A DNA stretch of 64,000 bases from Chamaelirium japonicum (taxonomy: Eukaryota > Streptophyta > Magnoliopsida > Liliales > Melanthiaceae), in NCBI GenBank assembly GCA_947650365.1, contig OX393551.1, positions 64,345,644 to 64,409,643 on the forward strand, in the 5' to 3' direction. Made by a program: the position numbers and the translations under genes. The first letter of the stretch is position 1; every line of letters begins with the position of its first letter. Below the pieces are notes generated by a model that ran no database searches, was not told the DNA's origin, and saw only the letters and a program-made list of their open reading frames with translations. This document shows positions 3,090 through 58,546 of this stretch, piece by piece.

Positions 3090-3173
3090 TTAATTGGCTT
3101 TGCAAGCAGCAGGATTGCGCCCAAACTGAATGATCATTGGCTTACCCTTAAAGACATAGCCATTCACTAAATT
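3090..3173 (-). CDS. SNRNP65: U11/U12-65K exon 11 (C-terminus and stop)
   Basis: 84 nt: [20 protein letters not shown], then a short tail PAACKAN and TAA at 3092-3090. It closes RRM2. The acceptor is TTTTGCAG. The 3' UTR continues below 3090; no polyadenylation site could be fixed. Confidence 0.93.
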   Translation of the reverse strand, partial: NLVNGYVFKGKPMIIQFGRNPAACKAN

Positions 3174-6100
3174 CTGCAAAAGAGTATGATTTTCAAGTTG
3201 AATGTGAAGGGAAGCAAAGAACCTGAAATTGCATTTAAGTTTTAAGATCTACATGACTTGTGACAGCTACCGGGTCAGTGAATCCTAAGAAACGAAAATG
3301 TTTCTTAGGTATCCCATGCTAAGGATCCCATCCTTAGTATCCAATTCTAGACAAAGCTAAGCATTGCCAGACCAGCCCTTTATTTCCTGAGATAACCATC
3401 TGAGTAAAAATAGCGGCAACTAGAAGTAGATTGAGCTACTTTAGACTGAATGTGCTCCACTTGCAACAGCAGTAACATGTTAAATGATTTATGCATATAT
3501 AAAGGGAGTTGCATTAATTTTCAAAAAAAGTAAGGGCAAATTACAAAAAACCTCCCCTGAACTACACACCTGATATCAGATTGGTCCCTCTTAACATTTT
3601 TTTTAATTTGACCTATGAGCTATGCTCCGTCTGCATTTACTCCCCTAAGTCAACATTTATTCCGAAAATACCCTTGTAGTTCATTATTTAAGTATTATTG
3701 GAAATAAATAAGGGTATTTTCGGAATAAAAAGTTGACAAGAGAGCCTAAATGCAGACGGAGTGTAGTCCAGGGATCAAATTGTTTAAAAATTAGTTGAGG
3801 GACCAATATGAAATGAGGTGTCTAGTTCAGGGGAGGTATATGTGATTTGCCCACAAAGTAAAATGCCAATTATGAGTCCACATTCACATTAATTCATCAT
3901 ACACACCAGAGCATGATGAGCAAGTTCAATTGATGGAAATGTCACAAAAGCTTGCCCCCTCATTCGTCCCTCCTGAAACACCACAGATTGTACTAAACAT
4001 GAGTATCGTACATACTGTCATAAAGCATTATCATATAATCCTTTCTGATTGATTCAGGAAACATATTTGTTTACTCTCATAAAAGGGGGATATAGTCGTT
4101 TTATTCAAAGACAAGTACATATTACTCAATAACCTGCAAGAAGAAGTAAGTGCAGCTTACCAAAAAAGAACACAAGCAAAGCATACCATCAGAAGAACTT
4201 GGTAGTCAACTTTATTGTGTTCAACAGTTGTGTACGTATACCATGCCAGCGGCAGCATCAACAAAAGATTTAGCCACTAGAGACAAGATGTCAATGGGTA
4301 ACCTTTGGAGACGGCCATAATTCGCCATATATGAAACATCTATTGTATAAAAAACCATATAGTCGTATCGGGCAAGTATAAGATCATATGGACATGAAAC
4401 TATGAGTACATTGTATGTGATGTGATGTCATAGGGGATGTTTGTTACGTCCTAGGAAGCACGGACACTTCAATAGATCACCCGCACCTGTGTCGAACACG
4501 TGTCCGACACGGACACGGCCTGGACACGCCTCGGACACGTGTCCGACACGCCGGGGACATGGCAGTTGGATTTTTATAGGTTTTGGGCTTCGGACACGGG
4601 CTGGACTCGGACTGGACACGGGGCGAACTCGGGCTGGACACGGGGCTGAAGGCGGCCTTTTATTTTTTTAGCGTACCCGACCCGCCTATTAAACAAAACC
4701 CCACCCGCCCCACCCCGTGCTCCACTGTTCTACTCGGTGCGGTGAAAGAGGGGGTTCCCGGGGTTGAAACCCTAGCTGAGACGCCGATCGATCCCGCCGA
4801 AGCGCCGACCGATCCCGCCGAGGCGCTGACCGATCCAGACCCCGTCGAGTCTCCAACGCGATCCTCCGACTCCGCCGAGACGCCGACCAACCAAGTCGCC
4901 ACCGACGCCCAGATATTCCTTCCCCTTCCTCTCATTTCTCCTCTTTTTTTCTTTTTCATGTATCTCTTCTCTTCTTCCTCCTCTCCTACCTCTGCTCCTG
5001 CTCCTGCTCTGTCCTCTTCTCCCTCCTCTCCTCTGATCCTACTCTCATGCTCCTTCCTCATCTCCACGTTGAAACTTAAATTTTTTTTTTCAATTTTTTT
5101 GTTTTTTAATACATAACCATGAATCAGTCAAATGGCTGATCCATGTTTATGCATTAAAAAACAAAAAAAAAACTATGAATTTTTTTCAACATAAAATAGT
5201 AAATTGTTTTTTAAAGAATGTTTTTTTAAAAAAGAATTTTTGTTTTTGACTACAAAAACATGAATCAGTCATTGACTGATTCATGTTTTTGCATTCAAAA
5301 ATAAAATATTATGGAATTTTATTTTTCTTAAAAAACAGTGGGTTTTTTATTTGTTGTTACTTGTTAATTAGTTATTTCCAGAGTTGCATAGTTGAATATC
5401 AGTTACTTCCATAGTTGCTTGCTCCTATAGTTGCATATTGTTGTTAGTTGCATCATATATGCATATTGTTAAGTAAATTATTGTCATGTTAGGAATTTCA
5501 ATAAACATATCAAGTTCTGTCGCGACTTCTAGCTCTGAAGCCGTCGATAGTGGCGTCACTGGCATGTCAAGAGATGATGAGACAAAGCCATTGTGGAAGT
5601 ACGTAACAAGGGTTGAGAAAGCTTCCGGAGGTGGTGGGAATGTTAAATTTGAATGTAATTTCTACAAGGGTACCTACACAGAATCGTATACTAGATTGAA
5701 GGCACACTTGTTGAAAATTACTGGATTTGGGATCGGAAAATGCAGTAAGGTGAGTACCGAAGCAATCAATAAAATGAAAAGAGAAGTGGAACAAGCAGAA
5801 TTGAAAGTCAAAGAGACATGCCCAAAGAAGTACCTTTGCCATCTGTTGGAGGAAGCAGTACACGGTCAACTTCGCTTAGGCAAGAAGCATTTGATCCGCG
5901 AAAAAGAAAGGTGGTGGGAAACACGGCAATTGAGAAGACCTTCAATGTTGGTGCTAGAGAAGACTTACAAGCGGAGATAGCTCGTATGTTCTTCACAAGT
6001 GGCTTGCTGTTTCATTTAGCCAGAAATCCCCATTATGTGAAGGCTTTTACCATGGCTTGTAATAGCAACCTTGGCGGCTTTGTGCCGCCCGGTTACAATA

Positions 6101-8752
6101 TATTGAGGACAACATTGTTGGAGAAAGAAATGGTAAATGTCGAGTTGCTTTTGCAACCGGTGAGAAATGCATGGAAGGATAAAGGGGTTAGCATTGTCAG
6201 TGATGGATGGACTGATGCACAGAGAAGACCTCTTATCAACTTTATAGCAGTGTCAGAAGGACAAACTATATTCCTAGAGGCCGTGAACTGCGAGGGTGAG
6301 TATAAGGACAAGCATTTCATTTCTGGTTTGATCTTAAAAACCATAGAAGAGGTTGGAGCTACAAATGTTGTCCAAGTTATCACGGACAACGCTCCAGTTT
6401 GTCGTGCGGCGGGTTTACTTGTTGAAGCCACACATTCTCACATTTTCTGGACATCATGTGTGGTGCATACCCTCAATCTCGCCCTTAAAAATATATGTGC
6501 TGCAAAAAATACCGAGGCAAATGAGATAGTATATGATAAATATAGTTGGATCACCATTGTCGCTGGGGATGCTTCGATGATTAAAACTTTTATTATGAAT
6601 CATTCAATGAGGCTCGCAATTTTCAATAAGTTCGTGAAGTTGAAGATGCTATCGATTGCGGATACCCGATTTGCCTCGGTGGTGGTGATGCTGAAAAGGT
6701 TCAAGCTTATCAAGAAAGGTCTCCAAAACATGGTCATTAGTGATCAATGGTCCATGTATAGAGACGAGGATGTGGAAAAAGCACAGTTTGTGAAGGAGAA
6801 AGTCCTCGATGACTTGTGGTGGGACAAGGTGGACTACATCCTCTCCTTTACAGATTCTATATATGATATGTTGAGACTAGCAGACACTGATAGACCATGC
6901 CTCCATCTAGTCTATGATATGTGGGATACAATGATTGAGAATGTGAAAACTGCCATCTATCGAAATGAGAAGAATCAAGAAGATGAGGAGTCGTCCTTCT
7001 ACACAGTGGTGCATAATTTCTTGGTTGATAGGTGGAACAAAAGCAGTACACCACTACATTGCATGGCGCATTCGCTGAATCCTAGTTAACTAAATCTAAT
7101 GGGCTAAATGGCTAATATTCTATTGCTATCGAATATTTTTATTTATAATCCATGGTTGATTAGATTTGTTAACCTGTTTTTGTAGATATTATAGCCATGA
7201 ATGGCTTAGTGGTGCTCCAAATCGGCTAGCACCACATCAAGATGCAGAGATTGCTAAGGAAAGAAAGGCATGCATGCAAAAATTCTTTCGAACTGCAGAG
7301 GAGCGTAGAATGGTCAACATTGAATTCGCCAAGTTCTCTAGTGGGGTAGATGACTTTAGAGATAGCGACTCGTTGCATGATAGAGGGGTAATGGATCCTA
7401 AGTTATGGTGGCCTGTGCATGGAGATGTTACCCCTAAACTTCAACGCTTGGCATTGAAGTTACTTGGACAACCTTGCTCATCTTCTTGTTGTGAGAGGAA
7501 TTGGAGCACTTATGCATTTATCAATTCAGTGAAACGAAATAAGATGGCTCCACAACGAGGGGAAAATTTGGTCCATGTGCACAACAACCTATGGCTCCTA
7601 TCAAGGAAAAGTCCAAACTATCATGAAGGGGAAAGCAAGATATGGGATGTAGGAGGGGATGGCTTTGACTCACTTGATGGTGCCGGTGTGCTTGAGATTG
7701 CGGAGCTCTCGCTTGATGAACCGGATTTGGAGGCCATGATATTTCTTGATGGAGATAATGATGATGATATGAACATGGATGCTTAATCTTCATTATCATG
7801 TGTTTCTTTTGTTTTTTGGTGCTTTTGGATGTTTTTGGTTGTTGAATTATGGAAATATGAAACTTATGGTTATCTAATGTCTATCTCTACTTATGCGTAT
7901 TGAGGACCTCGACTCTGGCTTGTCGATTGGAATATGCATAAAATTTTCATTTTAGTTGTTTTCTACGGGGTAATTTTTTTGTTATTGAAATATATATGAA
8001 TTATAACCGCGCATAAAATATTAAAAAATATATTAATTTATTTTGCCGTGTCCCCGTCGTACCCGTGTCCTCTTTTTTTAGGATTTGTCGTGTCGTACCT
8101 GTGTCCCCGTACCCGCATTAGTGCTTGTTAGGTTACATCCAACTGGGTTCATGTAACTACAATTGCAGTAATTCACCTAAACCCATTGTTTGGCTACTTG
8201 AAGAAGAGTTAGACGATAATTGAGTATGCTAACACCTTCAATCTTTTGACGCTCAAGATAAAGTTCATAATAATGCTACTCTAACCCATAACAAAACCAT
8301 GCTTAAAAGTCTATAATATAGAACAACATGTTTACTAGGCATGTATTTAATCTTTGATAATGAAATATATGCTAGTGACAACTCAAATCCAAAAACTATG
8401 TTCATCAAGCATAAAATCAATGTATATCATATCTTTGAACCATATCTATCACACCCTGCCATCTTATGTACAAAATACTTATAACATATATAATGTACAA
8501 ATGACATGACATATATATTATTATATTCTAAAATACAAACAGAGGGTATGATATTCTCTCACATTGTTGATAACAACGGAAGTCCCTATGGTTCTGTCAA
8601 TGGTTCTATGAAGAGAGCTCCTATTTAGCATACAAGGGGACATGCTCATACCTTGTATTTTCAAATAGTGTTCAAAAACCCAGAACTTGGACTCAACTCG
8701 AAAGTCCAACGAGTCGAGTAACTCGAAGACTCGACTTGAAACTCGACTCGGC

Positions 8753-8822
<70 letters not shown>

Positions 8823-12848: not shown

Positions 12849-12904
<56 letters not shown>

Positions 12905-45900: not shown

Positions 45901-48900
45901 GTTTCCTTAGAGTCCTCGGAAGGCCTAGTACGAAGTCCATGCTGATATCTTGCCACGGACAATTTGGGACCGGTAAAGGAGTGTACAGGCCAGTGTTTTG
46001 CTTGTGCTGCTTGGCTAGCTGACAGGTGTGACATCTACCAACGTGCCTAGCAACATCGCGCTTCAGACTTGGCCAATAGAACCAGTATTCCACAGCTTTA
46101 ATCGTTTTCTCATTACCAAAATGTCCGACAAGACCTCCAGCGTGCAACTCCCATACGAGAAACTCACGTAAGGATGTTCGTGGGATGCACAACCTTCGTC
46201 CCCGGAACAGATACCCATCATGCATGAGATAGCCATCAACTTCGGACAGGGTCCCGTCTCTCAATAACGCATAGGTTTCACTAAAGTTGGGACATGACTC
46301 ATACTCGGCTTTTATCCTAGCAAACCCATCAACTGCCGTGGTTAATTTGGAAAGGATGAACGCGACGACTGAGCGCATCAGCGGCTTTATTTTCAACTCC
46401 CGCTTTGTGGCGCAGACTAAAAGTATAGTCCTGGAGGAATTCAACCCATCGACCATGTCGCGCATTCAGTCTCTTCTGGGAGTAAATATAACGGAGGGCC
46501 TCATGATCAGAAAAAATGGCGAATTCTTGCGGCAAGAGGTAATATCGCCAATGGCGAAGTGATTGAATCACCGCATAGTCGAGTGTCATTTAGCTTCTCG
46601 CTAAAGTAGGCGACCGGGTGGCCTTCCTGGGAAAGGACTCCACCTATCCCAAGCCCAGACGCGTCGCAAGCCACTTCGAAAACCTTAGAAAAATCAGGGA
46701 GACGCATGACAGGGGCCTCAACCATCCTTTTCTTTATTTCAATGAATGCTCTCGTGGCGGCACTAGACCAAGTGAATTCACCCTTCTTCAAACAGTCAGT
46801 CACTGGGGCCATGATGTACTGAACCCTTTAATGAACCGACGATAAAAGGTGGCTAGCCCATGGAAACTCCTGACATCACGAATAGTCTTGGGTTCGGGCC
46901 ACTCTTCGATAGCTTTGACCTTTTCGGGGTCCACAGAGACTCCCTCGATAGAAACAACAAATCCTAAGAATTGGACCTGGGTTGTGAGAAACGTGCACTT
47001 CTTCGGATTGGCGTACAGCTCTTCTTTTCTCAACACAGTACAGACTTGACGCAGGTGGTCTAAACGTTGCGCCCGAGATTGACTATAGATAAGTATGTCG
47101 TCAAAGTACACCACAAGGAATTTACCCATAAATGGTCGGAGTACTTGCGTCATAACTCTCATAAAGGTACTCGGGGCGTTAGTCAGCCCAAAGGGCATAA
47201 CCATCCACTCATATAGCCCATCCTTAGTCTTGAACGCAGTCTTCCACTCGTCGCCAGGACGGATACGAATTTGGTGATAGCCACTCTTCAGGTCGATCTT
47301 GGAGAAGATGGTAGCTCCGGACATCATATCCAGCATGTCGTCCAGTCGCGGGATAGGAAAACGGTACTTGACTGTTATTTTGTTGATGGCGCGACTATCG
47401 ACACACGTACGCCATGATCCGTCTTTCTTAGGCGTCAGCAGGGCGGGGACCGCACAAGGACTCATACTCTCCTTGATGAAACCCTTTTGTAGGAGTTCGT
47501 CAACCTGCCTCTTCAACTCCGCGTACTCAGTAGGGTTCATTCGATAATGTGGCAGGTTGGGAAGACTTGCCACAGGGTCCAAATCAATGGCATGCTGTAT
47601 GTCGCGCATCGGGGGCAGTTGGTCAGGGAGAACTTCAGGGAAAACGTCAGCAAACTCCCTAAGCACAGGGGTGACTTCGGGGGGAATCGACTGGCCGGAG
47701 TCCTTAGGGGTTTCTCTTGCTACTAGGATGATGATAGGAGCTCCCTTTTCTACCTCGTGACTCAGCTCTTTGGCACTGACAAAACTAACGCTCTTGGCTT
47801 TCTTTGCGGGGGCAGTCTTTTGCTCGGCTTGGGCACTCTTGGATGGGGAGGGGATCAACTTGACTTTCTTGCCCTAATGTTCAAACAGACACATGTTCGA
47901 GCGTCCGTAAATGAGGACATCGTTATCGAACAGCCAAGGTCTTCCCAAGATGACTTGGCCCACATCCATGGTCAGGACATCACACCAGATCTTGTCCTGG
48001 TAGATGTTGAAATTGATAGGCACTAGGCACCTCTGCTTGACCTCCATGGCAGTGGAGTTGATCCAAGACACTTGATAGGGACGAGGGTAGGGGACGACCT
48101 TGAGGCCAGGCTTGGAGATTACCGCGGATGACACGGCATTGATGCAACTACCACTGTCGATGATGACCTTACAGTTTTTATCCCCAATTTTGGTGAACGT
48201 GTGGAAAATAGCGGTGCACCTCCAGTCATCTTGATCCTTGGGTTGGGATAGTGCGCACCTAACAACTGACACGGTGGGGGACGACAACTGCCTAAGACAA
48301 CTCAGAATGGCACCGTCAGCATCGTCATCAAAATCTCCATCTTCTTCTTCTGCCTGGTAGATGAATTCTTCTTCTCCGGGCTCTACTGCTTCGATGGAAT
48401 TGCCATCGACAATGTTGACTCTGACAGGACTGGGGCAGTTGGCAGCTACGTGGCCATACCCTTGACATTTGTAACACTTTGTGAGAGGGTTGACTTTGGA
48501 GAAGTCTCGCTCGACACTCTTCCCTCAGGCGTCCCTCTCAAAATTCTTATTGGGAATGCTAGGCTTTGGCTGAGATGAGTTGGGGTAGGTTCGATTGGAA
48601 TTGCTAGGGGAGGGCCTGGCGGGATAACTCCTGGAGTCAGGATGCCTGTAGGCCTGACTGGACCTAGAGGCGTCAAGGTCTTGTACTAAAGCGTAGGCTC
48701 TTTCCAATTCCGCGACATCTCTGGCAAGGAGCTCATTCCTTAGGTCTTCCCTCAGACCAGACCGAAAACGGGAAAGGACTTGGACAGGCGTCTCGGTCCC
48801 AAGGACGTTGCAGCGAGTGAGGAACTCATCAAATTTGGCAACATAGTCCTTAGCCGATTTGCTACCTTGGGTAAATTGGTGCCATTGGTCTAACAGTCGT

Positions 48901-51900
48901 GCCTGATACGATGGTGGCACATACTTACCCTTCAGCTCATTCTTCATGGCGACCAAAGTATCAATAGGGTCCTGGGTTCGCGCAACTCTCAAAGCTTCCA
49001 CGTTGGTCCAGTATTGGCTCGCGGGTCCGCTGAGCTTCATGGATGAAAAGCGGACCTTCCTAACCTCAGTTAACGGGTACCACATGAAATACCGATCCAT
49101 GGACTGGAGCCAGTCCAAGAAAAACTGGGGATCATGTCTACCATCAAAAGACGGTACCTCTAACCGAATACTTCGAAGGTACTGATCATCGGGGTCCTGA
49201 TTGTTTTGCCAGTTGGCCGGGTGCCCTTGAGGGGGATTGGGAAACTCGACATGCGGATCGGTCCGCGCTTGTTCCATCCGGTCTAACCAGGCATTGGTGT
49301 CGCGCTGATATGCGGCACGATTTTGGTTCATGGCGGTTATACCTTGGGTCAACTCAGCGAGTGCTCTAGTCAAGGCCTCGGTATCCATATTGTAATTGTC
49401 CGACTCGCTAGACTCTCCTAACAGATATGGCCTACCCCTACGGGTTGGCATGCAATGACAACACACAAGATGATGCTAATATTGATTTTTTTTTTTTTTT
49501 GACTTAATGCATAAGAACTAAAATGGATGCACGATGCATGATCAGGTGTTGAATGCGAATGATCTAGCTATAATGATGCAGTATGATCAGCATCATCAGA
49601 TCATCACCGCATCTTCGGTTCATCGTCAGAGACCATTATTTACAGTCGTTTTATTTTATGCTTGGAGGACATTACCCATATGGGATTTGTTCGTCGTTTA
49701 TTTCAGTTTTTGGCCATTTTTCTATGTTTTTGGCCTGATTTCAGCACTTAGTACTATTTGTGTTTTTGCCCAATTCATGGGGGATGTCCATGATCTCATC
49801 CGAGGGCTTTTCGGATTGAATCTGGGTCTTCTCGGGCGAGTTTCTACATGATATTAATAAAATTATGGGTATGTGTGTTTGCGGGGTACCGACGGACGAG
49901 ATTAGATCTCGAAACCGACGGTTAGATAGCAAAATAGCTCCATTTAGATGACGTAGCAAGTTATGGGCTTCAGTTAGGGATTAAATGGGCTTATCTTAAG
50001 CCCAATAGGTCTTCTATTGAGTTACCGCCCCCCCCCCCCTTTCTCTTTTCCCGTGAACCACCCGACCGGCTCCCTTGTCCGCGCGAAAACCGAGGCCCGG
50101 ACCCCTAGTCCGTCCCTCTCTTCTCTCTCTCTCTTCTCTCCCTTTTCCTTGCCTTTCTTAGCCCTTTGAATCCCCACCATCCTCCCTTATTCCCCTTTGA
50201 TCTTGGCCATCCAAACAGAAACCCTAATTCTACAAAAAGATGAAGAAAGAAGAAGAATTCAGTTCTTTGCTCATTGCTGAAATTTGTGCCTCTTCGTGAG
50301 TGCTTCCGGGCGAGACGCGTGTCCCCGATCCTCGCCGCATCCGCGACTTGCCTTGTGAAGGCCTCGGTGTTGTTCTTCCGAAGGTTCCGGCTTCTCCCGA
50401 TGTCCGGCCTTGCTCCGTGTGCGGGATCATCGGCGCATCCTCGCAATCGACCCACGGCGGAAAACCCCAGGCAGTATCTATCTTTTACTTTATTTCCCAT
50501 CGCATCCGCATCGTTTTCATTTGTTTCCATTGCCTCCGCTCCGCATTGCAGTCGTCATCTTCCCTTTCATCGCTAGTTGAAGTCCTAACATATGCCTATT
50601 CATTAGTTTTGCTATCTATAGTCTGTCGGTAACCCTAGCAAGCATATCTAACCTATTTTTAGTGAAAAATCTGATGCAAACCTATTGTTAAATTTCCATA
50701 TCTATTGCTGCGATTGAATCTGTTATTTGCTGAAATTAGTTTTGTGATAACATTGCGTTCTTTATTGTTCAATCTGAAACCTGCTTTGTGTTGATTGCGT
50801 AGACTTTTAGTCCTGCGCGAGATAACTTATATTTGCTGTCCTTTTGAGTTATACAGTGCTATATTGATCACTAAATTTTAGTTATTGACCAAAGGGAACC
50901 CTAAAAGGGTTTAAGATTGTAGTGCACCTTATCGGCGCCTGCATCATATAACCATGCTCTGATACCAAAAATGATGTGGGACAGTGTGTGTAACAGGGAT
51001 TTCAAGATTCGTTAAGCGGTGACAGGATCGCTAGTTTGCTCCGAGCCGAAACAGGACAATTAATTTAAACAATCAATGTGGCGAATGTTTTAAGCAAAGC
51101 CGAGCCGGCACACAAACGGTATTCCAACGCTTAAATAGCTAAATAACATGTACCCGGTTATTAGCAAAGTTCTACGTGCAATATTAGGACTAGCGGCTAA
51201 CAAGGTTAAACAGAATCACACGCCTCATATTTTATGGGAAAAACAGCAGTTTATAGATAAAACCTAGGAGATTCGATTATTGGGGCTACCCTCGAATATT
51301 GACCGGGGGAAAAGGAAACTCACCTACTGAGGGTTGTGGGGGACCTCAGGGATCTCAACTGGTGGCGGGGTCGATGTCGATGCGGTGTCCTCGGGTTGGG
51401 CCGGGGCTTGAGCGAGGGCCTGGAGTGCTAGTACGTTGGGATGTACGGGCGCGCCGGGATGCCACCGTTGATGTTTCTCCGAGATTCCCAGCCGTGCTTC
51501 TACGTCTTTGACGACGAGGTAGGTGATGCGCTCCACGTACTCCTTCACGCTCTCGCCGGCGCTGAACTGGAAGTCGAGGAAGGGAGACCGGATATCGAGG
51601 AATCCGTCTTCGTCGTCGATCAGGCTGTGATCAACATCTGGATCCGTCATGCCGTCATACCGAGGGGGTGGAACGGTGGGATTCGGGTCGGATCGCAAGA
51701 GAGAAAAGGGAGGGGGAGGGGATCGGGAGGCAAGGGGAGGGGGGTTCGGTTGGTTGCAGGGAAGGGGAGGGGATGGGATGGGGTGAGGCCGGTCGGGTGG
51801 GAGTGGAGGCAGGGGCTCGGGGGCGACGGCACAGAGAGGTGGCCGGGGCCGGGGCTGGTTTGGGTGGTGGGGACGGGATCGGGCAGGTCGGATGGAGAGG

Positions 51901-54081
51901 AGAGGAGAGAAGAGACGGGATCGGGAGGGAGGGAGGCGCAAGGGGGGTTGGGGCCGGTCGGGATGGAGAGGAGAGGAGGGGAGGGAGGGGGTCGGGAGAG
52001 AGAGCGGCACAAGGGGGGAAGGTCGGGCGAGTCGGGTGGGAGAGGAGAGGAAAGGAGGGAGGGGGTCGGGAGGGGGAGCGGCATAATGGGGGAGGTTGGG
52101 GCCGGTCGGGTGGGAGAGGAGAGGAGAGGAGGGAGGGGATCGGGAGGGAGTGCGGCACAGGCAGGGTCGGCCGGTCGGGTGGGAGAGGAGGAAAAAGATG
52201 AGAGCTAGGGTTTCACACACTAGCCTGATCCTCGGGTTTCACAAGCCTAGGGTTTGGGTTTGGGTTTCACACACCTCACCCTGGTTTCTCTCAACACACA
52301 TGTGGAGGAAAACAAATTTTTATTATTCATTCCATCTGAAAGAAAAGATGACAGGCCTATAAATAGGCTTACAACGACAGACGAAACAGCCCACTAATCG
52401 AGGTGAGACTAAAAGTACACAAGCCAAATAACAAAACAGAAAAAACAACAGCCAACATGACTAGAACCACATGCTCAGATGTCACCTCCTGCGCTGGTAC
52501 ACTCGTCAGGGCCGAGGCTCGATGTCCCCATCACTTATCTAAGTTTTCTATCACTTTTGGGGAAAGCCAAAAATTGGGATACAATTATATGATACAATAT
52601 AAAAAGTGGTAGAGAAAATCAAGTGGTGGATGCTCTTTCATACAAAAAAGGAGAATGCAGCGATTTCTAGACAATTATATATCTTGAATCTGTTCTACAT
52701 GGCCAGATTACACAATGGCAAAAGTGATATAATTTTATTCTACAATCCTAACACATCCTTGTTACCAAAGATTTTGGGAAAGCTACATGAGACTCCCCAA
52801 TAGCTGGACATTCTGGGTATAAAAATACTCTCAAGAACTACAACCTTATTCTATCGCCCGGGGATGTGTGAGACGATCAAGAACTTCATTAAACAATGTG
52901 ACGTTTTTCAAAGAAACAGTGTCGAAAATGTAGCTCCAGCTGGACTTCTACAACCATTGGATGTGCCTGAGCGTATTTGGAGCGATATATTCCTGGACTT
53001 TATTGAAGAGTTACCCATATCAAGCTGTGTTTGTCATTTAGCCAAAGGAAAGATGGCTTTAGACCATTGAGGGAAAATCTAATCCGTGCAGAAGGAAGGA
53101 AAACGGAACATGATCTAAAGTTAATGATTGGATTTATCTTTGCTTGTAGCCATATCACCAAACCGCAGTGGCTATCAGACGACCACTAATATTGCTTGCA
53201 TGTTACATTGGCCCCTATCAAGTAATGTACCGGTCGCACAAGCTAGCATTCTCGAAAGGTTCATGCAGCGGCATTCCATGTTTCATTTTTGAACAGGAAG
53301 GTCAACAAGGCCCACGCCCGAACATCCTTGCCGACCTTCGAAGAGCACGATACTTTACAGCCACAACCACCCACTACTTTGGGTCCTTGTATGATCAATA
53401 AAGAATCAAGTGATCACTAAGATCTTTTTTTTTTTTTTTTTTTGACATCGGCGGGTGTCCTGAAATCTTTCGGGCAATGGCCCACTTCAGGCTCGGACTA
53501 ATCCCTCCGGGAGTGAAGCCCAACCCACTCGGCAATTCCCACTTCACTAAGATCTTAGTTCGATGGCAGGTTGCCCTACCCGAGGATACAAAGTGTACGA
53601 AGTACAATTCCTTTGTGGAAAGATTACCAAATGTTTCACTTTGTTAGGAAGCCCTAAACCCGATCACGATAGACGATAGATAATTAGTTGTTTTGAAGCC
53701 CTTCTTTGCTTGAATTGGACCATTCCCGATTCTTCTTCAACATCAAAACATCTTTTCTACGAAGGAACACATTACACAGCATGGGAATTTTTCACCAAAC
53801 ATGGGTTTATAATTTTGAGGAAAGAGTATGAGGAGAAGGGGGGGGGGGATGGGGTAATACCTCCCACCGGCGCAAGGGCGGACGGCGGAAGCTCCGTAGT
53901 GAGAGAAGAGGCGAGAGAGCATGTCGTGGGGTATCGACTCCGGGAGATGCCGAACTAGCAGGGTCGCCGTCGCCGCCGCCGCTTCCTCTGAATTGGTAAT
54001 CGACTGCTGCTGCTGCTGCCGCAGCGGAGGAGTAGGAACGGTTGGATGGTGGTGGAAGTAGGTAGGGACGCTCGACGCCAT
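3090..54081 (-). CDS. SNRNP65: U11/U12-65K-like minor spliceosome protein (RNPC3 family), 11 exons, whole gene span
   Basis: In this family the protein is part of the nuclear U11/U12 di-snRNP, contacts U12 snRNA and helps bridge the two snRNPs. CDS is the complement of join(3090..3173, 3907..3972, 14505..14563, 14767..14854, 16642..16815, 16890..17039, 17140..17319, 17473..17554, 19160..19375, 19486..19557, 53861..54081): 1,392 nt, 463 residues plus stop. RRM1 is about residues 39-108 (LLVRHL at 41-46, RNCAFVDF at 76-83). A proline-rich stretch is about 213-238. RRM2 is about 375-450 (VLYIKNL and [10 protein letters not shown]). The motif [13 protein letters not shown] across the exon 4/5 join is a family hallmark. 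All ten introns are GT-AG, phases match at every junction, and no stop interrupts. The ATG at 54081 has A at -3 and G at +4. Family recognition is from memory; transcription is not shown. Confidence 0.93.
3534..3852. mobile_element. Mutator-type MITE in intron 10
   Basis: Long terminal inverted repeats: the left end starts GGGCAAATTACAAAAAACCT and the right end, reverse-complemented, starts GGGCAAATCACATATACCTC. The inner arms also fold back (CCGTCTGCATTTA and its complement). Flanks AAAAAGTAA (3525-3533) and ACAAAGTAA (3853-3861) are a 9-bp target duplication with one mismatch, typical of Mutator-like elements. The 319-bp element sits between exons 10 and 11. Confidence 0.85.
3907..3972 (-). 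CDS. SNRNP65: U11/U12-65K exon 10 (RNP1 of RRM2)
   Basis: 66 nt, 22 codons: [20 protein letters not shown] then AL. It holds the RNP1 motif of RRM2. Acceptor TTTCAG, donor GTGTGT. It is too short to show in an ORF scan and was found by matching the expected sequence between exons 9 and 11. Confidence 0.93.
5253..5291. repeat. 39-bp palindrome inside the hAT element
   Basis: A perfect 19-bp inverted repeat around one base, centred on the sequence TCAGTCATTGACTGA. A degenerate relative (ATGAATCAG and CTGATCCATG) occurs at about 5117-5150. Both lie in the untranslated leader before the transposase. Confidence 0.8.
5486..7786 (+). pseudogene. hAT transposase (BED finger, DUF659, hAT dimerisation), disrupted
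   Basis: This gene would cut and join the hAT ends. The first segment (5486 to about 5815) holds an N-terminal BED-like finger whose CxxC reads C-N-F-Y, so the second metal cysteine is missing. A frameshift near 5800-5818 is needed to reach the second segment (to 7084), which carries DUF659 ([24 protein letters not shown]). The third segment (7186-7786) carries [13 protein letters not shown] and the C-terminal dimerisation region ([21 protein letters not shown]). The conserved NP-[RK]-YYS join spans an intron at about 7086-7185; the only GT donor (7085) leaves the frame off by one, as if one base was lost. Three defects make an active protein unlikely. Confidence 0.85.
8140..8668. other. Intron 9 spacer
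   Basis: AT-rich sequence with no open frame or repeat that I recognise. Confidence 0.5.
8669..8960. mobile_element. Non-autonomous insertion rich in GACTCG repeats
   Basis: Flanked by an exact 11-bp direct repeat TTTTCAAATAG (8658-8668 and 8961-8971), evidence of an insertion. Both halves are dense in ACTCG/CGAGT motifs. The centre holds a TA/TG microsatellite (about 8757-8822). The termini (CCCAGAACTTGG and CCAAAACTCGG) match weakly. A relative lies at 15253-15579. The composition suggests a hAT-type MITE. Confidence 0.65.
8757..8822. repeat. (TA)n(TG)n compound microsatellite
   Basis: A TA run passes directly into a TG run in the middle of the GACTCG-rich insertion. Confidence 0.92.
8972..9866. 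other. Intron 9 spacer with small open frames
   Basis: Three overlapping plus-strand frames of 84-106 codons (9277-9833) show no recognisable domain. They are probably chance frames or transposon remnants. Confidence 0.4.
9875..10802. mobile_element. Non-autonomous hAT-type element (928 bp)
   Basis: Perfect 15-bp terminal inverted repeats CAATGTTTAAAAAGG / CCTTTTTAAACATTG with a perfect 8-bp target duplication CATGGAAT (9867-9874, 10803-10810). Both subterminal regions hold repeated AGGCGT/AAGCCTC motifs; the centre is AT-rich with no transposase. 8-bp duplications and subterminal repeats point to hAT. Confidence 0.9.
10811..11849. other. Intron 9 spacer
   Basis: Mixed purine-rich and AT-rich DNA including a G13-14 run near 11361-11373. 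No protein similarity recognised. Confidence 0.45.
11850..12437 (+). pseudogene. Chromovirus (Ty3/gypsy) integrase C-terminus and chromodomain, remnant
   Basis: Broken frames carry [12 protein letters not shown], then [20 protein letters not shown], then a chromodomain ([20 protein letters not shown], followed after a frameshift by the expected TWIS and LDPDLLE-type region). This is the 3' end of a chromovirus pol. At least two frameshifts are needed, so it is dead. The same arrangement, with the coding end abutting TGATGG at the LTR start, is seen in the element at 43239-52533. Confidence 0.8.
12438..13322 (+). repeat. Probable 3' LTR of the chromovirus remnant
   Basis: Starts TGATGGTGACATCG directly after the chromodomain reading, as in the intact chromovirus. 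It holds a TC microsatellite and ends tentatively near 13322. Only one LTR copy is present, so the right boundary is a guess. Confidence 0.45.
12850..12901. repeat. (CT)n microsatellite
   Basis: About 26 CT units, uninterrupted. Confidence 0.95.
13323..14504. other. Intron 9 spacer next to exon 9
   Basis: AT-rich. No domain recognised on either strand. Confidence 0.5.
14505..14563 (-). CDS. SNRNP65: U11/U12-65K exon 9
   Basis: 59 nt. Two bases complete Gly395, then [19 protein letters not shown] (396-414). Acceptor CTTTCAG, donor GTTAGA. The next exon is 10.5 kb away. Confidence 0.93.
14767..14854 (-). CDS. SNRNP65: U11/U12-65K exon 8 (RNP2 of RRM2)
   Basis: 88 nt, residues 366-394 plus one base. 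It reads [18 protein letters not shown] then [11 protein letters not shown], the start of the C-terminal RRM, which binds U12 snRNA in characterised homologues. Acceptor TTTGCAG, donor GTAAGT. Confidence 0.94.
14855..16641 (-). other. Intron 7 of U11/U12-65K
   Basis: 1,787 bp, donor GTATGG, acceptor TTTGCAG. It contains a GACTCG-rich insertion (15253-15579); the rest is unassigned AT-rich sequence. Confidence 0.85.
15253..15579. mobile_element. GACTCG-rich non-autonomous insertion in intron 7
   Basis: Same composition as the element at 8669-8960 (CGACTCG and GGCCGAGTTTT blocks at both ends). Flanked by TTTTAAAA (15245-15252 and 15580-15587), a possible 8-bp duplication, though this octamer is low-complexity. 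Probable hAT-type MITE. Confidence 0.55.
16642..16815 (-). CDS. SNRNP65: U11/U12-65K exon 7
   Basis: 174 nt, 58 codons, phase 0. An acidic linker ends [11 protein letters not shown], the conserved lead-in to the C-terminal RRM. Acceptor ACGGCAG, donor GTATGG. Confidence 0.92.
16890..17039 (-). CDS. SNRNP65: U11/U12-65K exon 6
   Basis: 150 nt, 50 codons, phase 0. It is lysine/arginine-rich ([15 protein letters not shown], then IKKKNPVLQ), probably including a nuclear localisation signal. Acceptor TTGCTAG, donor GTATTT. Confidence 0.92.
17140..17319 (-). CDS. SNRNP65: U11/U12-65K exon 5 (proline-rich)
   Basis: 180 nt, 60 codons, phase 0 at both ends. It begins [14 protein letters not shown], continues through a proline-rich stretch including seven consecutive prolines, and ends with an acidic serine segment ([11 protein letters not shown]). 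Acceptor TTTGCAG, donor GTACCC. Confidence 0.94.
17473..17554 (-). CDS. SNRNP65: U11/U12-65K exon 4
   Basis: 82 nt, residues 170 (split) to 197. It reads [20 protein letters not shown] then VPRFYTQ, the conserved central segment of the RNPC3 family. Acceptor TTATAG, donor GTTTGA. Confidence 0.94.
17555..19159 (-). other. Intron 3 of U11/U12-65K
   Basis: 1,605 bp, donor GTATGT, acceptor TTATAG. AT-rich; no transposon or gene recognised. Confidence 0.85.
19160..19375 (-). CDS. SNRNP65: U11/U12-65K exon 3 (end of RRM1 and linker)
   Basis: 216 nt, residues 98 (split) to 169 plus two bases. It reads [12 protein letters not shown], the last strand of RRM1, then a serine-rich linker ending [10 protein letters not shown]. 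Acceptor ATATAG, donor GTATGT; in phase with exons 2 and 4. Confidence 0.93.
19486..19557 (-). CDS. SNRNP65: U11/U12-65K exon 2 (RNP1 of RRM1)
   Basis: 72 nt. The acceptor is a T-run then GCAG. The first G completes codon 74 (AG|G, Arg), giving [14 protein letters not shown] across the junction. It ends QLN plus AG before donor GTGTTT. The exact phase fit and conserved sequence across the join link it to exon 1. Confidence 0.93.
19558..20171. other. Start of TE-bearing part of intron 1
   Basis: AT-rich sequence upstream of the exon 2 acceptor. Nothing recognised apart from the A-run at 19562-19571, which is the polypyrimidine tract on the minus strand. Confidence 0.5.
20172..20693. mobile_element. 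MITE with perfect 15-bp ends (hAT-like)
   Basis: Terminal inverted repeats TAGGCCTGTCAATGG (20172-20186) and its complement CCATTGACAGGCCTA (20679-20693). The body is rich in GATCCGAATCCG-type repeats. A second internal CCTGTCAATGGACC near 20534 suggests a nested or duplicated copy. No clean target duplication was found. Confidence 0.75.
20694..21429. other. Intron 1 spacer
   Basis: No gene recognised. The right part has degenerate GTGATCA/GATGATG-type repeats related to the sequence beyond the Tat element (38330-39250). Confidence 0.45.
21430..21476. repeat. Partial 89-bp tandem unit left of the Tat insertion
   Basis: The 47 bp ending GGATGAGATCACAT matches the end of the 89-bp unit repeated at 38103-38330. 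It shows that the retrotransposon landed inside that array. Confidence 0.8.
21581..21710. repeat. 32-bp tandem repeat in the LTR (about 4 copies)
   Basis: Units begin GGCCCGCACACAAYGGCCCG. The same array is in the 3' LTR at about 36146-36275. Confidence 0.8.
22244..22251 (+). promoter_or_regulatory. LTR TATA box
   Basis: TATAAATA follows a C-rich tract and precedes GGGTGGGGG. The same box is at 36809-36816 in the 3' LTR. It is the likely core promoter of the element. Confidence 0.7.
22628..22855. repeat. 60-bp tandem repeat in the LTR (about 4 copies)
   Basis: Units start CCGGTGCTAC/TCGGTGCTAC at 22628, 22688, 22748 and 22808 and each contains CAACCGTCG. The 3' LTR copy lies at about 37193-37420. 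The 60-bp period keeps frame, giving spurious open frames on both strands. Confidence 0.85.
23544..23562 (+). other. Probable primer-binding site of the Tat element
   Basis: TGGCACGCCCGGTGGGACC begins six bases after the 5' LTR end, where a tRNA primer site is expected. The matching tRNA was not assigned. Confidence 0.5.
23610..27860 (+). CDS. Tat retrotransposon gag-protease polyprotein
   Basis: 1,416 codons from ATGGCCGG. The gag domain (about residues 270-450) contains [20 protein letters not shown] and a C/H motif [14 protein letters not shown] near 550, the zinc-binding form usual in Tat gag. The aspartic protease (about 1015-1130) has [11 protein letters not shown] at the active site, with Cys where many retropepsins have Ser or Thr, and LLLGRPWL. 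Two direct 67-residue repeats occupy about residues 670-800. The frame ends TAA at 27858-27860, but the same frame continues into RT, so this stop may be a mutation or a readthrough site. Confidence 0.88.
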   Translation: MAGTNDDTFAPTSLSPIAESPLLQHGDPENPEDVIPPVVRVYTRRTQTLADFFTPETAAEDARQGANEVLVHEETSLNPGTSVQKFGEDQPQPRARSGSPADIAPPLPGANIRHQAEASQRNYVSDDDGEGAGMQHRDVLRHHPPSALQLQVMQMGEHMAQLTRLMEEKDRHINTLLQRLSARDVATFGQPPASPVAAPAPSPTEVGPATLATTPALSSAPVPVSVAAQPSVAATMNAQQIQALVADMMRSHGGSLPPITAAYSKPYTARIQQLRFPTGFQPPKFQHFDGKGNPRQHIAHFVETCNNAGTYGDEMVKQFVRTLKGNAFDWYVDLPPGSIDSWDQMEREFLNRFYSTRRIVSMTELTAVKQRKDESVIDYIDRWRNLALNSRDRLSEDSAIEMCTQGMHWGLLYILKGIKPRSFEELATRAHDMELSLANRGDSKTKDFLKVEKKDKPPAPKSKQVNVADIASASKPLKISGKSDQEKGAAIPPPPPQRQSKMTLEELEAKEYPFPDSEVSSMFDQLLQEKMIELPPSKRPEQMHRVNYPLFCKYHRLVSHPIEKCFVFKEKIMALAKQGKIEIDSSDVATANMTSITFGSFQPVLVAAHQRRPKLRINRQRPIAKLAPRRKISRRQQYAPKLAEEETSLPWGQPSPMSTSLSNKAMSQRNLQTRYKQGDPEVGLLGQPSGKFDYYVLYSRPSHVSIEEIKPTGWESEGEPPRSPEEQGSLTHGEPTNLQTRYEQGDPEVGLLGQPSGKFDYYVLYSKPSPVSIEEIKPTGWESEGEPPRSPEEQVSPTHEGPTAPTPELHLGNEESTDEDAWVMLPRRRRPWMPRSRKFDRVTRKLPERRTYKKKSKAPGRKAFKVPPADPDDLLLQNPPEPTTLQEFFPDYFLPANQQHEASCCMVEIHVAPEEEDRIKPSKESNTDNEEDDSDKDSTAAYDEAILHLPLIEALHLPEKARLAMAEALTDPDSYKRKKKNAEKDKTIVSCNAAITFSDEDLQLGARLHNRPVYVSGYINEKPVNRILLDCGSAVNIMPIQTMRQLGITTDQLSQSQLVIQGFNQGGQSTIGIIRLKLSISQLDTTVLFHVIDCQTSYHLLLGRPWLHENGVVVSTWHQCLKYYEEGLEKCIVADDKPFNEAEAHLADAKFYQAKDLVAEVLPAKAPRTQKAKRMEQEEALPTPDPVPLSKAIREVKEVLAPRRRMCISSKPRSMKHTPLPAQATTVLCLTPQWLRKDEPPPFASPKGMVQPLSEANVITLQEMTLPLPSLGQASSSPKPINPFESSQLTFKPKGSWGQNAAKLLFKAGYDKDSAAHMSTLLPAPIPHGMTKTQAHLLQGGEQIPPNRQGIGSRQTPMVIKITGEKTFTSNYIEVKLVDEAKEGSSASDARSTNIIHPATKGAKRRRCQARRRTIP
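25617..26012 (+). repeat. 201-bp in-frame tandem duplication in gag
   Basis: Copy 1 (25617-25817) and copy 2 (25818 to about 26012) are nearly identical. Each encodes the 67-residue unit starting LQTRY and containing [13 protein letters not shown]. The period is 3 x 67, so the frame is kept. Confidence 0.92.
27861..30293 (+). pseudogene. Tat retrotransposon reverse transcriptase and double RNase H, with in-frame stops
   Basis: Continues the gag frame. RT carries [20 protein letters not shown] and the catalytic YVDD. A degenerate gypsy RNase H follows, then a second, archaeal-type RNase H ([31 protein letters not shown]), the feature that marks the Tat group. Stops break the frame at 28566-28568 (TGA after DLNNA), 29928-29930 (TAA) and 30291-30293 (TGA). 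Each looks like a single-base change of a conserved codon. No frameshift was found. Confidence 0.88.
30294..31457 (+). CDS. Tat retrotransposon integrase
   Basis: Open from after the TGA at 30293 to TAA at 31457, with an internal ATG at 30327. It has an HHCC zinc finger ([18 protein letters not shown]), then the catalytic core with Asp in GLDIVGP, Asp in VTDNGKQF and Glu in GLAEAFNKT (D,D-35-E pattern). The C-terminal domain ends [13 protein letters not shown]. There is no chromodomain. In the element this is the last part of pol, in the same frame as gag and RT, so it would normally be made from the polyprotein. Confidence 0.88.
   Translation, partial: RSLKFFHFNNELYRRSYDGALLRCLAKEEAEIALEEVHAGICGSHQSGPKLHFRIRRMGYYWPTMIKDSLEFAKRCHTCQLHGDYIRQPPEPLHPTIASWPFDGWGLDIVGPLPKSSKQHLYILAATDYFSKWAEAVPLREVTRHSVINFIQNDIIFRYGIPRYIVTDNGKQFKNAAVSQFCAKFDIKQKCSTMYASANGLAEAFNKTLCKLLEKVVSKSKKDWHERMGEALWAYRTSFRTPTQATPYSLVYGVEAVLPLELQIPSLRIAVQEGLVNGDNAQLRLAELEALDEKRLEAQQRLECYQARLTQAFNKRIRPRSFQKGELVLAVKRPIILSHRGGKKFDAKWDGPHVVKEVYSNGAYLLTTPEGLTLGPINGKYLKRYYA
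31706..34559 (-). CDS. Antisense ORF of the Tat element: plant-mobile-domain-like protein with C-terminal coiled coil
   Basis: Two long open frames (34559-32748 and 32731-31706) join cleanly through an 85-bp GT-AG intron (32764-32680; donor GTATACC, acceptor TTGGCAG), giving about 922 codons: complement(join(31706..32679, 32765..34559)). The first exon resembles the plant mobile domain ([19 protein letters not shown], then [12 protein letters not shown] and MLYDRFTGC). The second has a proline/acidic linker and an Ala/Glu/Arg-rich coiled coil (about the last 120 residues). The open frame begins with GTG at 34559 and the first ATG is at about 34505. A TGA at 34565-34563 separates it from a further 143-codon open stretch in the same frame up to 34994. 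Antisense extra ORFs are known in Tat elements; function unknown. Confidence 0.75.
34985..35348. repeat. 90-95-bp tandem repeat with hairpins, 4 copies
   Basis: Units begin CCTTGAGCAAATAAAG at 34985, 35075 and 35170, with a variant at 35260. Each contains GGGTCACGGCAAAAAGCCGCGA-type inverted repeats and a CCTGTTAAA block, and the units are joined by G-runs. It lies between the antisense ORF and the 3' LTR. Confidence 0.88.
35349..35745. other. Extremely GC/CpG-rich block in the Tat 3' region
   Basis: About 400 bp almost only G and C with very many CpG, including an internal direct repeat of GTGCCGCTCCGGCCC (about 35490 and 35550). Long open frames here on both strands are compositional and are not called as genes. 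Confidence 0.8.
36027..36041 (+). other. Polypurine tract of the Tat element
   Basis: AACTTGAGGGGGCAC lies just before the 3' LTR start (TGTGGGC at 36042), the expected site for plus-strand priming. Confidence 0.7.
36042..38102 (+). repeat. 3' LTR of the Tat element
   Basis: 2,061 bp, same length as the 5' LTR, about ten substitutions and no indels seen. It carries the same TATA box and the AATAAA at 38068-38073. Confidence 0.93.
38103..38330. repeat. 89-bp tandem repeat (about 2.5 copies) beside the Tat element
   Basis: Units start CACATGTAAGATG at 38103, 38192 and 38281. Each contains GAGAGGCAAGAGGGAATTAT. The sequence left of the 5' LTR is the missing end of one unit. Confidence 0.9.
38331..38519. 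other. Intron 1 spacer
   Basis: Degenerate GATCTTACA/ATGATAA repeats; nothing recognised. Confidence 0.45.
38520..38942. mobile_element. hAT-type MITE (TAGGGGTGGCAAT ends)
   Basis: Terminal inverted repeats TAGGGGTGGCAAT and ATTGCCACCCCTA. The flanking 8-bp duplication ATGACATG (38512-38519) / ATGACACG (38943-38950) has one mismatch. The 423-bp body is made of ACCCGACCC/GGGTCGGGT-type subterminal repeats. No coding capacity. Confidence 0.88.
39583..39638. repeat. 28-bp direct tandem duplication
   Basis: Two exact copies of a unit starting CATTTCTTCTCTTGTCC. Confidence 0.9.
39740..39768. repeat. (TGCCAG)n hexanucleotide repeat
   Basis: Nearly five TGCCAG units, slightly degenerate at the end. 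Confidence 0.9.
41072..41312. mobile_element. MITE with AGG(G)CACGTTTGRTTCCT ends
   Basis: Left end AGGCACGTTTGGTTCCT and right end AGGAATCAAACGTGCCCT are inverted. The body has repeated GCACATGTG motifs. No clear target duplication, so the superfamily is open. Confidence 0.65.
41313..42033. other. Intron 1 spacer with a diverged direct duplication
   Basis: A block with ATTATGGATA and ATTTATGCCCTAAGGAG occurs twice (about 41340-41520 and 41525-41700) with divergence. No gene. Confidence 0.55.
42034..43023. mobile_element. Non-autonomous TIR element (about 1 kb)
   Basis: Ends GCCTGTTTGGTTGC and GAATCAAACAGGGC are imperfect inverted repeats. The right half has several AGAGTTGCAACTCC subterminal repeats and the left half has GTTGGAAC blocks. 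No transposase and no clear target duplication. Confidence 0.55.
43239..44792 (-). repeat. 3' LTR of the chromovirus
   Basis: 1,554 bp. Same organisation as the 5' LTR, with substitutions and small indels mostly in the G-rich block (about 43925-44450). Confidence 0.9.
44793..46370 (-). pseudogene. Chromovirus integrase and chromodomain, disrupted
   Basis: Zinc finger ([21 protein letters not shown]) and core ([11 protein letters not shown], then [10 protein letters not shown] and [14 protein letters not shown]). A TAA near 45811-45809, a frameshift near 45460-45480 and another near 44960 interrupt it. The C-terminal part ([35 protein letters not shown]) leads to a chromodomain ([20 protein letters not shown]), whose reading runs to PSGENDGD at the LTR boundary. 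Chromodomains in this group direct insertion toward marked chromatin. Confidence 0.87.
46320..46812 (-). pseudogene. Chromovirus RNase H, deleted and frameshifted
   Basis: Restarts in a new frame ([34 protein letters not shown]). About 30 bp are missing after SEKLNDTR, removing the conserved RYSTYDKEF-type segment and shifting frame to [14 protein letters not shown] and [10 protein letters not shown] further frameshift lies near 46370. Confidence 0.82.
46800..48524 (-). pseudogene. Chromovirus zinc knuckle, protease and reverse transcriptase
   Basis: The frame continues from gag. Protease has [13 protein letters not shown] and [13 protein letters not shown] at about 47876-47874 separates it from RT (47873 onward), which has [24 protein letters not shown], the YFDD catalytic box and FLGFVVS. 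RT ends with a one-base frameshift near 46810 (KGFST then out of frame). Confidence 0.87.
48525..49466 (-). pseudogene. Chromovirus gag
   Basis: Open from 49466, with the first likely gag Met at [16 protein letters not shown], to a TGA at 48527-48525. It contains the gag core ([30 protein letters not shown]). Beyond the stop, the same frame continues into the zinc knuckle [14 protein letters not shown] (48476-48435), so gag was cut by a nonsense mutation just before it. Confidence 0.85.
49467..50955 (-). other. Chromovirus untranslated leader
   Basis: Between the primer-binding site and gag. It has a T-run at about 49482-49500 and a C-run at about 50027-50039. No domain was recognised in the small frames. 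Confidence 0.7.
50956..50967 (-). other. Primer-binding site (initiator methionine tRNA type)
   Basis: Minus strand reads TGGTATCAGAGC four bases after the 5' LTR, the classic site complementary to the 3' end of initiator Met-tRNA. Confidence 0.9.
50972..52533 (-). repeat. 5' LTR of the chromovirus
   Basis: 1,562 bp. It contains a long GGGAGGGG/GGTCGGG-rich block (about 51660-52190) and a TATAAATA/TATTTATA box near 52361. The GA-rich block opens large spurious frames. Confidence 0.9.
52545..53330 (+). pseudogene. Decayed Ty3/gypsy RNase H-integrase fragment
   Basis: Plus-strand broken frames: a RNase H tail (REN then QVVDALSYK), an integrase zinc region ([20 protein letters not shown]), [18 protein letters not shown] of the core, then a C-terminal part (WIYLCLQPYHQT, IGPYQV). 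Several stops and losses, including most of the catalytic core. It directly adjoins the chromovirus target duplication. Confidence 0.8.
53427..53543 (-). mobile_element. Short retroposon (SINE-like) with poly(A) on the minus strand
   Basis: Flanked by a perfect 13-bp duplication TCACTAAGATCTT (53414-53426, 53544-53556). The T-run at 53425-53445 is the poly(A) tail of a minus-strand insert. The 117-bp body resembles the 3' part of plant SINEs (CACTCCCGGAGGGATTAGTC). No A/B promoter boxes were confirmed, so it may be 5'-truncated. It lies about 320 bp inside intron 1 from exon 1. Confidence 0.75.
53861..54081 (-). CDS. SNRNP65: U11/U12-65K exon 1 (start codon, first half of RRM1)
   Basis: 221 nt encoding residues 1-73 plus two bases of codon 74. 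It starts ATG at 54081-54079 and includes a histidine/proline run, a Q5 run, an alanine-rich patch and the RNP2 motif LLVRHL. It ends RPCAGG followed by the donor GTATTA. The open frame continues upstream to 54147 only through a TTG codon, so 54081 is the first ATG in frame. The next exon lies 34.3 kb away. Confidence 0.92.
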
Positions 54082-56206: not shown

Positions 56207-56410
56207 CGACGATCAGTACATCACATGTTACGCATAGAGAACAAAAAAGATCAAGATTTGAATGCCTATAATTTTGCAACACGGATCACCGATAAATTTG
56301 TCATAAACACAAGAGATAATCTCACCACAAAGCAGAGATAAACCCACTACAAAGACGGAAGGGAGTCCGGACCAGCTGTCATCGGTGTTCCAAAATGACC
56401 AAGCTGTTGA

Positions 56411-58537: not shown

Positions 58538-58546
58538 TAAGTTTAA

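What the first reader, a model, noticed from the sequence alone, without database searches (positions are those of the whole stretch)
3090..54081. Intact U11/U12-65K gene stretched over 51 kb with a 1.4-kb coding sequence
Eleven exons, several under 90 bp, can be joined on the minus strand with matching phases and GT-AG junctions into a complete two-RRM protein. Simple ORF scans see only fragments and would miss that 3.1 kb and 54.1 kb belong to one gene. Nearly all other DNA between the ends is intronic transposon sequence.
Basis: partly seen in the sequence, partly recalled or inferred. Interest (0 to 1): 0.88.

Follow-up and report, generated by a model that had tools for sequence, protein, structure and literature searches.

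The report
Splicing gene stretched by jumping genes
A normal-looking monocot gene for a minor-spliceosome protein (U11/U12-65K) is spread over 51 kb, largely because retrotransposons landed in its introns recently on an evolutionary scale; the gene itself is a standard one, and its most unusual feature is that microRNA-2275 clusters flank it on both sides.

Summary
Eleven minus-strand exons join with matching phases and GT-AG borders into a 1,392-nt CDS (463 aa) spanning 50,992 bp. Each of five plant 65K proteins finds all 11 exons in order; a reversed-sequence control gives 0 hits. The best relative is date palm U11/U12-65K (81%), and the C-terminal RRM matches human 65K structures. It is an ordinary orthologue. 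Two LTR retrotransposons with 5-bp target duplications (about 0.2-0.4 and 1.2-2.4 My, at recalled rates) make up 25.9 of the 34.3 kb of intron 1; a hAT remnant lies in intron 9. "Nearly all" transposon is overstated: I could show about 56%. TE-expanded plant introns are known. Not shown: transcription, and absence of a second copy (the genome-wide protein search did not complete). Functional coupling is speculation.

The parts
53861..54081 (-). U11/U12-65K exon 1 (start codon, proline/glutamine-rich N-terminus, first half of RRM1)
   Evidence: one match in own genome
19558..53860 (-). intron 1, 34,303 bp, GT-AG, U2-type
19486..19557 (-). exon 2 (second half of RRM1)
19160..19375 (-). exon 3 (216 nt, in-phase; absent from a Magnolia isoform X2)
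17473..17554 (-). exon 4
17140..17319 (-). exon 5 (polyproline stretch)
16890..17039 (-). exon 6
16642..16815 (-). exon 7
14767..14854 (-). exon 8 (start of C-terminal RRM, RNP2)
14505..14563 (-). exon 9
   Evidence: weak match on its own
3973..14504 (-). intron 9, 10,532 bp
3907..3972 (-). exon 10 (RNP1 RGQAFVTF)
3090..3173 (-). exon 11 with stop codon
21477..38102 (+). RT1: Ty3/gypsy LTR retrotransposon, LTRs differ at 10 of 2065 sites, TSD CACAT on both sides; antisense to the gene
32748..34559 (-). plant mobile domain (PF10536) ORF inside RT1, antisense to its gag-pol
43239..52533 (-). RT2: Ty3/gypsy LTR retrotransposon, coding broken into separate ORFs, LTRs differ at 48 of 1549 sites, TSD CTTAT on both sides
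5818..7786 (+). hAT transposase remnant (DUF659 and hAT dimerisation region) in intron 9; possible terminal repeats near 4496 and 8068
56404..57086 (-). four-hairpin MIR2275 cluster 2.3 kb upstream of the 65K start codon, same strand (neighbour, not part of the gene)

Best explanation
This is the intact-looking U11/U12-65K (RNPC3 orthologue) gene of a monocot with a 1.5-Gb genome. Shown from sequence: a complete two-RRM reading frame in 11 exons with U2-type GT-AG introns, spread over 51 kb. Much of the stretching is recent: intron 1 would be about 8.4 kb without its two LTR retrotransposons, which inserted with 5-bp target duplications about 1.2-2.4 and 0.2-0.4 million years ago (LTR divergence, recalled rates). 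Inferred: the pre-mRNA is transcribed through silenced intronic transposons and spliced by the major spliceosome, as for other heterochromatic long introns in plants (IBM2/EDM2-type protection from premature 3' ends). The protein would then link U11 and U12 snRNPs by binding the U12 3' stem-loop with its C-terminal RRM.
For: Exon chain and open frame; all 11 exons found by each of the 5 homologues tried of 120 listed, 0 hits in the reversed control; palm, Typha, Dioscorea, Amborella and Aquilegia matches run from exon 1 straight on into exon 2; 81% identity to Phoenix dactylifera 65K over 92% of the query; placed inside monocots in a 34-row tree (33 of the 120 plus this protein), paired 95/90 with an unnamed protein of source lgn; C-terminal RRM matches 5obn/3egn, RNA-binding protein 40, E 1.3e-25; RNP2 Tyr and RNP1 Gln/Phe present; LTR pairs and TSDs; TE domains.
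Against: No transcript data. The genome-wide protein search for another copy did not complete. RT1 is young and 16.6 kb, so some or all transcripts may end prematurely inside intron 1. A 4-aa gap in exon 6 relative to palm, Typha, Amborella and P0009 is a minor oddity. Exon 9 is weak as a stand-alone match. LTR ages rest on recalled substitution rates.
Confidence: 0.9

Rival explanations
1. The locus is a decaying or silenced copy: the frame is still open, but recent insertions in intron 1 stop full-length transcription, and another copy supplies the protein.
For: RT1 is only about 0.2-0.4 My old, so the frame would not yet have decayed; no transcript data; protein search for a second copy unanswered.
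Against: Exon 1 plus flanks has one match in the 1.52-Gb assembly; 11 exons, 10 splice junctions and the stop are intact.
Confidence: 0.07
2. Exon 1 is not joined to exon 2: an alternative first exon or start near exon 2 is used, and 54 kb belongs to another transcript.
For: The distance is 34 kb; simple gene finders would split it (inference).
Against: Exon 1 encodes the first half of RRM1 and ends after two bases of a codon; palm, Typha, Dioscorea, Amborella and Aquilegia proteins continue from exon 1 into exon 2 residues without a gap. A crude motif count finds both halves of RRM1 close together in 84 of the 120 listed proteins; the other 36 were not looked at.
Confidence: 0.02
3. The length is an assembly artefact: a contig join placed unrelated repeats inside the gene.
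For: The assembly has 3,253 contigs; no read data were available to me.
Against: Both LTR elements in intron 1 are complete from LTR to LTR with matching target duplications on both sides, which a false join would not produce; exons are ordered and on one strand.
Confidence: 0.01

Closest known systems
Plant U11/U12-65K (Arabidopsis u11/u12-65k, rice, date palm orthologues)
   Same: Two RRMs, polyproline linker, conserved C-terminal RRM; 81% identical to date palm over 92% of the query.
   Different: Gene length: 51 kb here. Gene lengths of the relatives were not available to me.
Grapevine large introns filled with LTR retrotransposons (PMC3058033, passages seen)
   Same: Young LTR elements in large introns, often intron 1 or 2, with exon structure kept; some introns over 20 kb.
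   Different: Mostly Copia there, two Ty3/gypsy elements here.
Oil palm EgDEF1 with Karma LINE in intron 5 (PMC6558080, passages seen)
   Same: Transposon inside an intron of a monocot developmental gene, tolerated while methylated.
   Different: LINE rather than LTR elements; a methylation-dependent splicing defect is shown there, nothing is measured here.
Vertebrate RNPC3 with USSE feedback element (PMC5473595, PMC3584512, passages seen)
   Same: Orthologous protein.
   Different: No tandem U12-type 5' splice-site pair in the last exons or 3' flank here; the one intragenic pair (39713/39688, intron 1) is within chance.
Gypsy-encoded plant mobile domain, PMD-A (PMC5418596, passages seen)
   Same: PMD carried by a Ty3/gypsy element, as in RT1.
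   Different: Clade not determined here.

Membership tests
U11/U12-65K (RNPC3) | Two RRM domains, one near each end | tested here: met
   Pfam RRM_1, 2 stretches, E 3.9e-22; C-terminal one located
U11/U12-65K (RNPC3) | C-terminal RRM with its N-terminal extension as in the human 65K structures | tested here: met
   residues 344-456 align to 5obn/3egn, E 1.3e-25; the paralogue RBM41 (9xu3) scores lower, 5.7e-23
U11/U12-65K (RNPC3) | RNP2 Tyr and RNP1 Gln/Phe in the C-terminal RRM (PMC11039992, passage; shared with RBM41 and U1A/U2B'', so not exclusive) | tested here: met
   Tyr in VLYIKNL (from 375), Gln and Phe in RGQAFVTF (from 419)
U11/U12-65K (RNPC3) | Groups with plant 65K orthologues | tested here: met
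   best hit named U11/U12 65 kDa, many others so named; inside monocots in the tree of 34 rows
U11/U12-65K (RNPC3) | Binds U12 snRNA, needed for U12-type splicing | not testable with these tools
   reported for Arabidopsis and human proteins (PMC4892727, passages)
USSE-regulated gene | Tandem U12-type 5' splice-site repeat downstream of an alternative 3' splice site | tested here: inconclusive
   2 tandem RTATCC pairs on the minus strand of 94 kb with 42 single sites, one outside the gene, one in intron 1; 16 of 200 Markov surrogates have 2 or more pairs. The intron-1 pair has a T-rich TGTTTTGTAG about 100 nt upstream, so it is not excluded
Ty3/gypsy LTR retrotransposon (RT1) | LTR pair TG...CA, 5-bp TSD, gag, RT, RNase H, integrase in this order | tested here: met
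   (protease matches below the curated cut-off)
Ty3/gypsy LTR retrotransposon (RT2) | LTR pair TG...CA, 5-bp TSD, gag, RT, integrase parts | tested here: met
   (integrase zinc-binding and C-terminal SH3-type parts; no match to the integrase core in the ORFs scanned)
MIR2275 | Covariance-model match over the gathering score | tested here: met
   2 of 4 hairpins of the window cluster over 60.5 bits; the other two 57.3 and 33.6
MIR2275 | Polycistronic cluster of stem-loops (PMC6367383, passages) | tested here: met
   four stem-loops within 683 bp on one strand; a common transcript is not shown
MIR2275 | 22-nt miRNA produced in anthers | not testable with these tools
   no small-RNA data

The most novel reading that the evidence does not exclude
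The U11/U12-65K gene lies inside a MIR2275 supercluster: duplicated four-hairpin MIR2275 units on both sides, one inverted, all pointing at the gene. Minor-spliceosome supply and the meiotic 24-nt phasiRNA trigger could therefore share anther-specific transcription, or read-through from pri-MIR2275 into 65K could regulate it.
Probability: 0.04. Interest if true: 0.65.

Novelty: new member of a known kind. Interest (0 to 1): 0.3.

Why it matters
It is a clean, datable example of a conserved gene whose first intron grew about fourfold (about 8.4 to 34.3 kb) within roughly one to two and a half million years while its reading frame stayed intact, useful for testing how plants transcribe through fresh intronic retrotransposons. 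It also warns annotation pipelines with short intron limits. The neighbouring MIR2275 clusters give a marker for asking whether the linkage is conserved in other monocots.

Tried and rejected
USSE-type feedback element: looked for in the 94-kb block; two tandem pairs, within chance, one of them in intron 1 and not excluded. U12-type introns in the gene itself: none of the 10 donors fits RTATCC. tRNA genes: none found by ARAGORN. Nested host genes in intron 1: 12 of the 32 ORFs of 150 aa or more lying there were scanned; those with Pfam matches are retrotransposon-type, plus a plant mobile domain, known in gypsy elements. An intron-containing nested gene would not be seen this way. miR2275 targeting of the 65K mRNA: no site with 3 or fewer mismatches in the exons as they lie in the genome (sites across exon junctions not covered). 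hAT terminal repeats: one 24-nt inverted pair at 83% flanks the transposase, weak. Other Rfam matches below gathering score (MIR869, MIR6440, MIR1444 and others): those I looked at fall on inverted or tandem repeats and were set aside. Species identity: left open; only 'monocot' is supported. Literature link between miR2275 and the minor spliceosome: 0 papers. MIR2275 synteny: 10 of 1,058 papers listed, only one of the ten holds miR2275 (a Paspalum apomixis paper, not opened).

Full report
Observation. The minus strand of the window carries 11 exons that join with consistent phases and GT-AG borders into a 1,392-nt reading frame of 463 aa plus stop, from 54081 down to 3090. The span is 50,992 bp and the two giant introns are intron 1 (34,303 bp) and intron 9 (10,532 bp). 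Exons 2, 4, 8, 9, 10 and 11 are under 90 nt.

Not chance. tblastn with 5 of the 120 listed homologues (Phoenix, Typha, Dioscorea, Amborella, Aquilegia) each recovers all 11 exons in order on the minus strand. These runs were unfiltered and also list many proline-rich hits elsewhere; exon 9 (E 0.004 to 0.034) is no stronger than some of those. With filtering, date palm gives 13 hits, 10 on exons (E from 8e-33 to 0.012), 3 others at E 1.8 or worse, and 0 in the reversed sequence. Exon-by-exon comparison with 9 homologues shows conservation in each exon that the homologue has, lowest in exons 1 and 3; P0009 is partial and lacks exon 1. A Magnolia isoform (P0111) lacks exactly the exon 3 residues, resuming at exon 4.

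Identity. Pfam finds two RRM stretches. The C-terminal RRM with its N-terminal extension aligns to RNA-binding protein 40 (65K) structures 5obn and 3egn at 1.3e-25, ahead of RBM41 9xu3 at 5.7e-23. The protein search gave 971 proteins at E <= 0.001, 120 listed, best date palm 65K at 81%. The RNP2 Tyr and RNP1 Gln/Phe described for 65K, RBM41 and the U1A family (PMC11039992, passage) are present. In a 34-row tree it falls among monocots, paired with an unnamed protein of source lgn (95/90), with relations to palm, Typha and others unresolved. The host is therefore a monocot, with a 1.52-Gb assembly; I did not identify the species. In Arabidopsis the u11/u12-65k mutant has stronger U12-splicing defects than the 31k and 48k mutants (PMC4892727, passages).

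What fills the introns. RT1 at 21477-38102 is a Ty3/gypsy element on the plus strand, antisense to the gene, with gag, RT, RNase H and integrase ORFs and a plant mobile domain ORF on the opposite strand. Gypsy-encoded PMDs are known (PMC5418596, passages). Its LTRs differ at 10 of 2065 sites (K 0.0049) and it has TSD CACAT/CACAT. RT2 at 43239-52533 is a Ty3/gypsy element in the sense orientation with its coding broken into separate ORFs, LTRs differing at 48 of 1549 sites (K 0.032), TSD CTTAT/CTTAT. At the recalled rates 1.3e-8 and 6.5e-9 the ages are 0.19-0.37 and 1.2-2.4 My. Taking both out leaves 8,372 bp of intron 1. Intron 9 holds a hAT transposase remnant (DUF659 and dimerisation region). 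Together 27,890 of 49,600 intronic bp (56%) are identified transposon; the rest is unassigned because the genome repeat searches did not complete.

How it works. Shown: intact coding capacity and splice sites. Inferred: transcription through silenced transposons and major-spliceosome removal of all introns, since none of the 10 donors has a U12-type core. In Arabidopsis, splicing of T-DNA-bearing heterochromatic introns needs IBM2 and EDM2 to prevent ectopic 3' ends, and in that study an intron of over 20 kb was not rescued, though the authors also mention transcribed introns over 100 kb (PMC5364540, passages). In oil palm, loss of methylation on an intronic LINE changes EgDEF1 splicing (PMC6558080, passages). 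A vertebrate-like USSE feedback element was not seen at the 3' end of this gene; one tandem pair in intron 1 (39713/39688) is within chance but not excluded. A review says the USSE mechanism for 48K/65K extends to plants (PMC3584512, passages).

Second copy. Exon 1 plus flanks (301 bp) matches the own genome once (that search skips simple repeats and very common words). The protein search that would settle copy number was sent 13 times and never answered.

Beside the gene. Rfam finds two MIR2275 hairpins over threshold in the window and two more below it, all on the minus strand 2.3-3.0 kb upstream of the start codon. Genome-wide the RF03896 search lists 29 matches (some are the two strands of one place), 10 over the cut-off; 7 of the 10 lie within 79 kb around this gene (only 61 of 146,710 candidates were scored, so counts are lower bounds). 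There are three four-hairpin clusters: left of the window on the plus strand (window frame -3640 to -3156), in the window, and right of it on the minus strand (74873-75359). They are copies of one another (K 0.137-0.155 over 893-915 sites). Left and right each have two hairpins with the recalled canonical 22-mer; the middle cluster's two best differ from it at one position each. MIR2275 clustering and its presence in grasses, Asparagales, Arecales and Commelinales is known (PMC6367383, passages). I found no paper that holds both miR2275 and minor spliceosome (0 papers), and one synteny search listed 10 of 1,058 papers, one with miR2275, not opened.

Verdict. Observation confirmed; gene ordinary; long introns of a known kind; 'nearly all transposon' and 'expressed single gene' not fully shown.

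Noticed in passing
56404-57086, minus strand: Four MIR2275 stem-loops in a polycistronic-looking cluster with a TATA-like CTATAAATAG just upstream, 2.3 kb upstream of the 65K start codon.
   Followed up: yes
L022:6360-6844 (+) and L024:873-1359 (-), i.e. 3.2 kb left and 11 kb right of the window: Two further four-hairpin MIR2275 clusters, duplicates of the window's cluster, the left one inverted; 7 of the 10 over-threshold MIR2275 hairpins found in the genome lie around this gene.
   Followed up: yes
22183-22204 and 36748-36769, plus strand: Both LTRs of RT1 hold, in the element's sense strand, a site that matches the miR2275 complement (recalled) with 3 mismatches; 100 shuffles of the window gave no match at all at that level. 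By my count one mismatch lies opposite miRNA position 10.
   Followed up: no
32748-34559, minus strand: Plant mobile domain ORF (603 aa) carried antisense inside the young Ty3/gypsy element RT1.
   Followed up: partly
C6, C9, C211 of the own genome: Seven MIR2275-like copies with the same score of 57.0 bits, four of them within 20 kb on C9; perhaps a MIR2275-like hairpin carried by a repeat.
   Followed up: no
61504-61888 and 62044-63869: Long tandem arrays of 43-bp and about 118/177-bp units rich in GACCGATCGGTC palindromes upstream of the MIR2275 cluster.
   Followed up: no
58272-58538 and 56553-56677: Self-complementary stretches (80-86% in self-comparison, MITE-like) beside the MIR2275 cluster; relatives of the first recur near the right cluster.
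   Followed up: no
38103-38339: RT1 lies against an 89-bp tandem repeat whose unit also borders its left side.
   Followed up: partly
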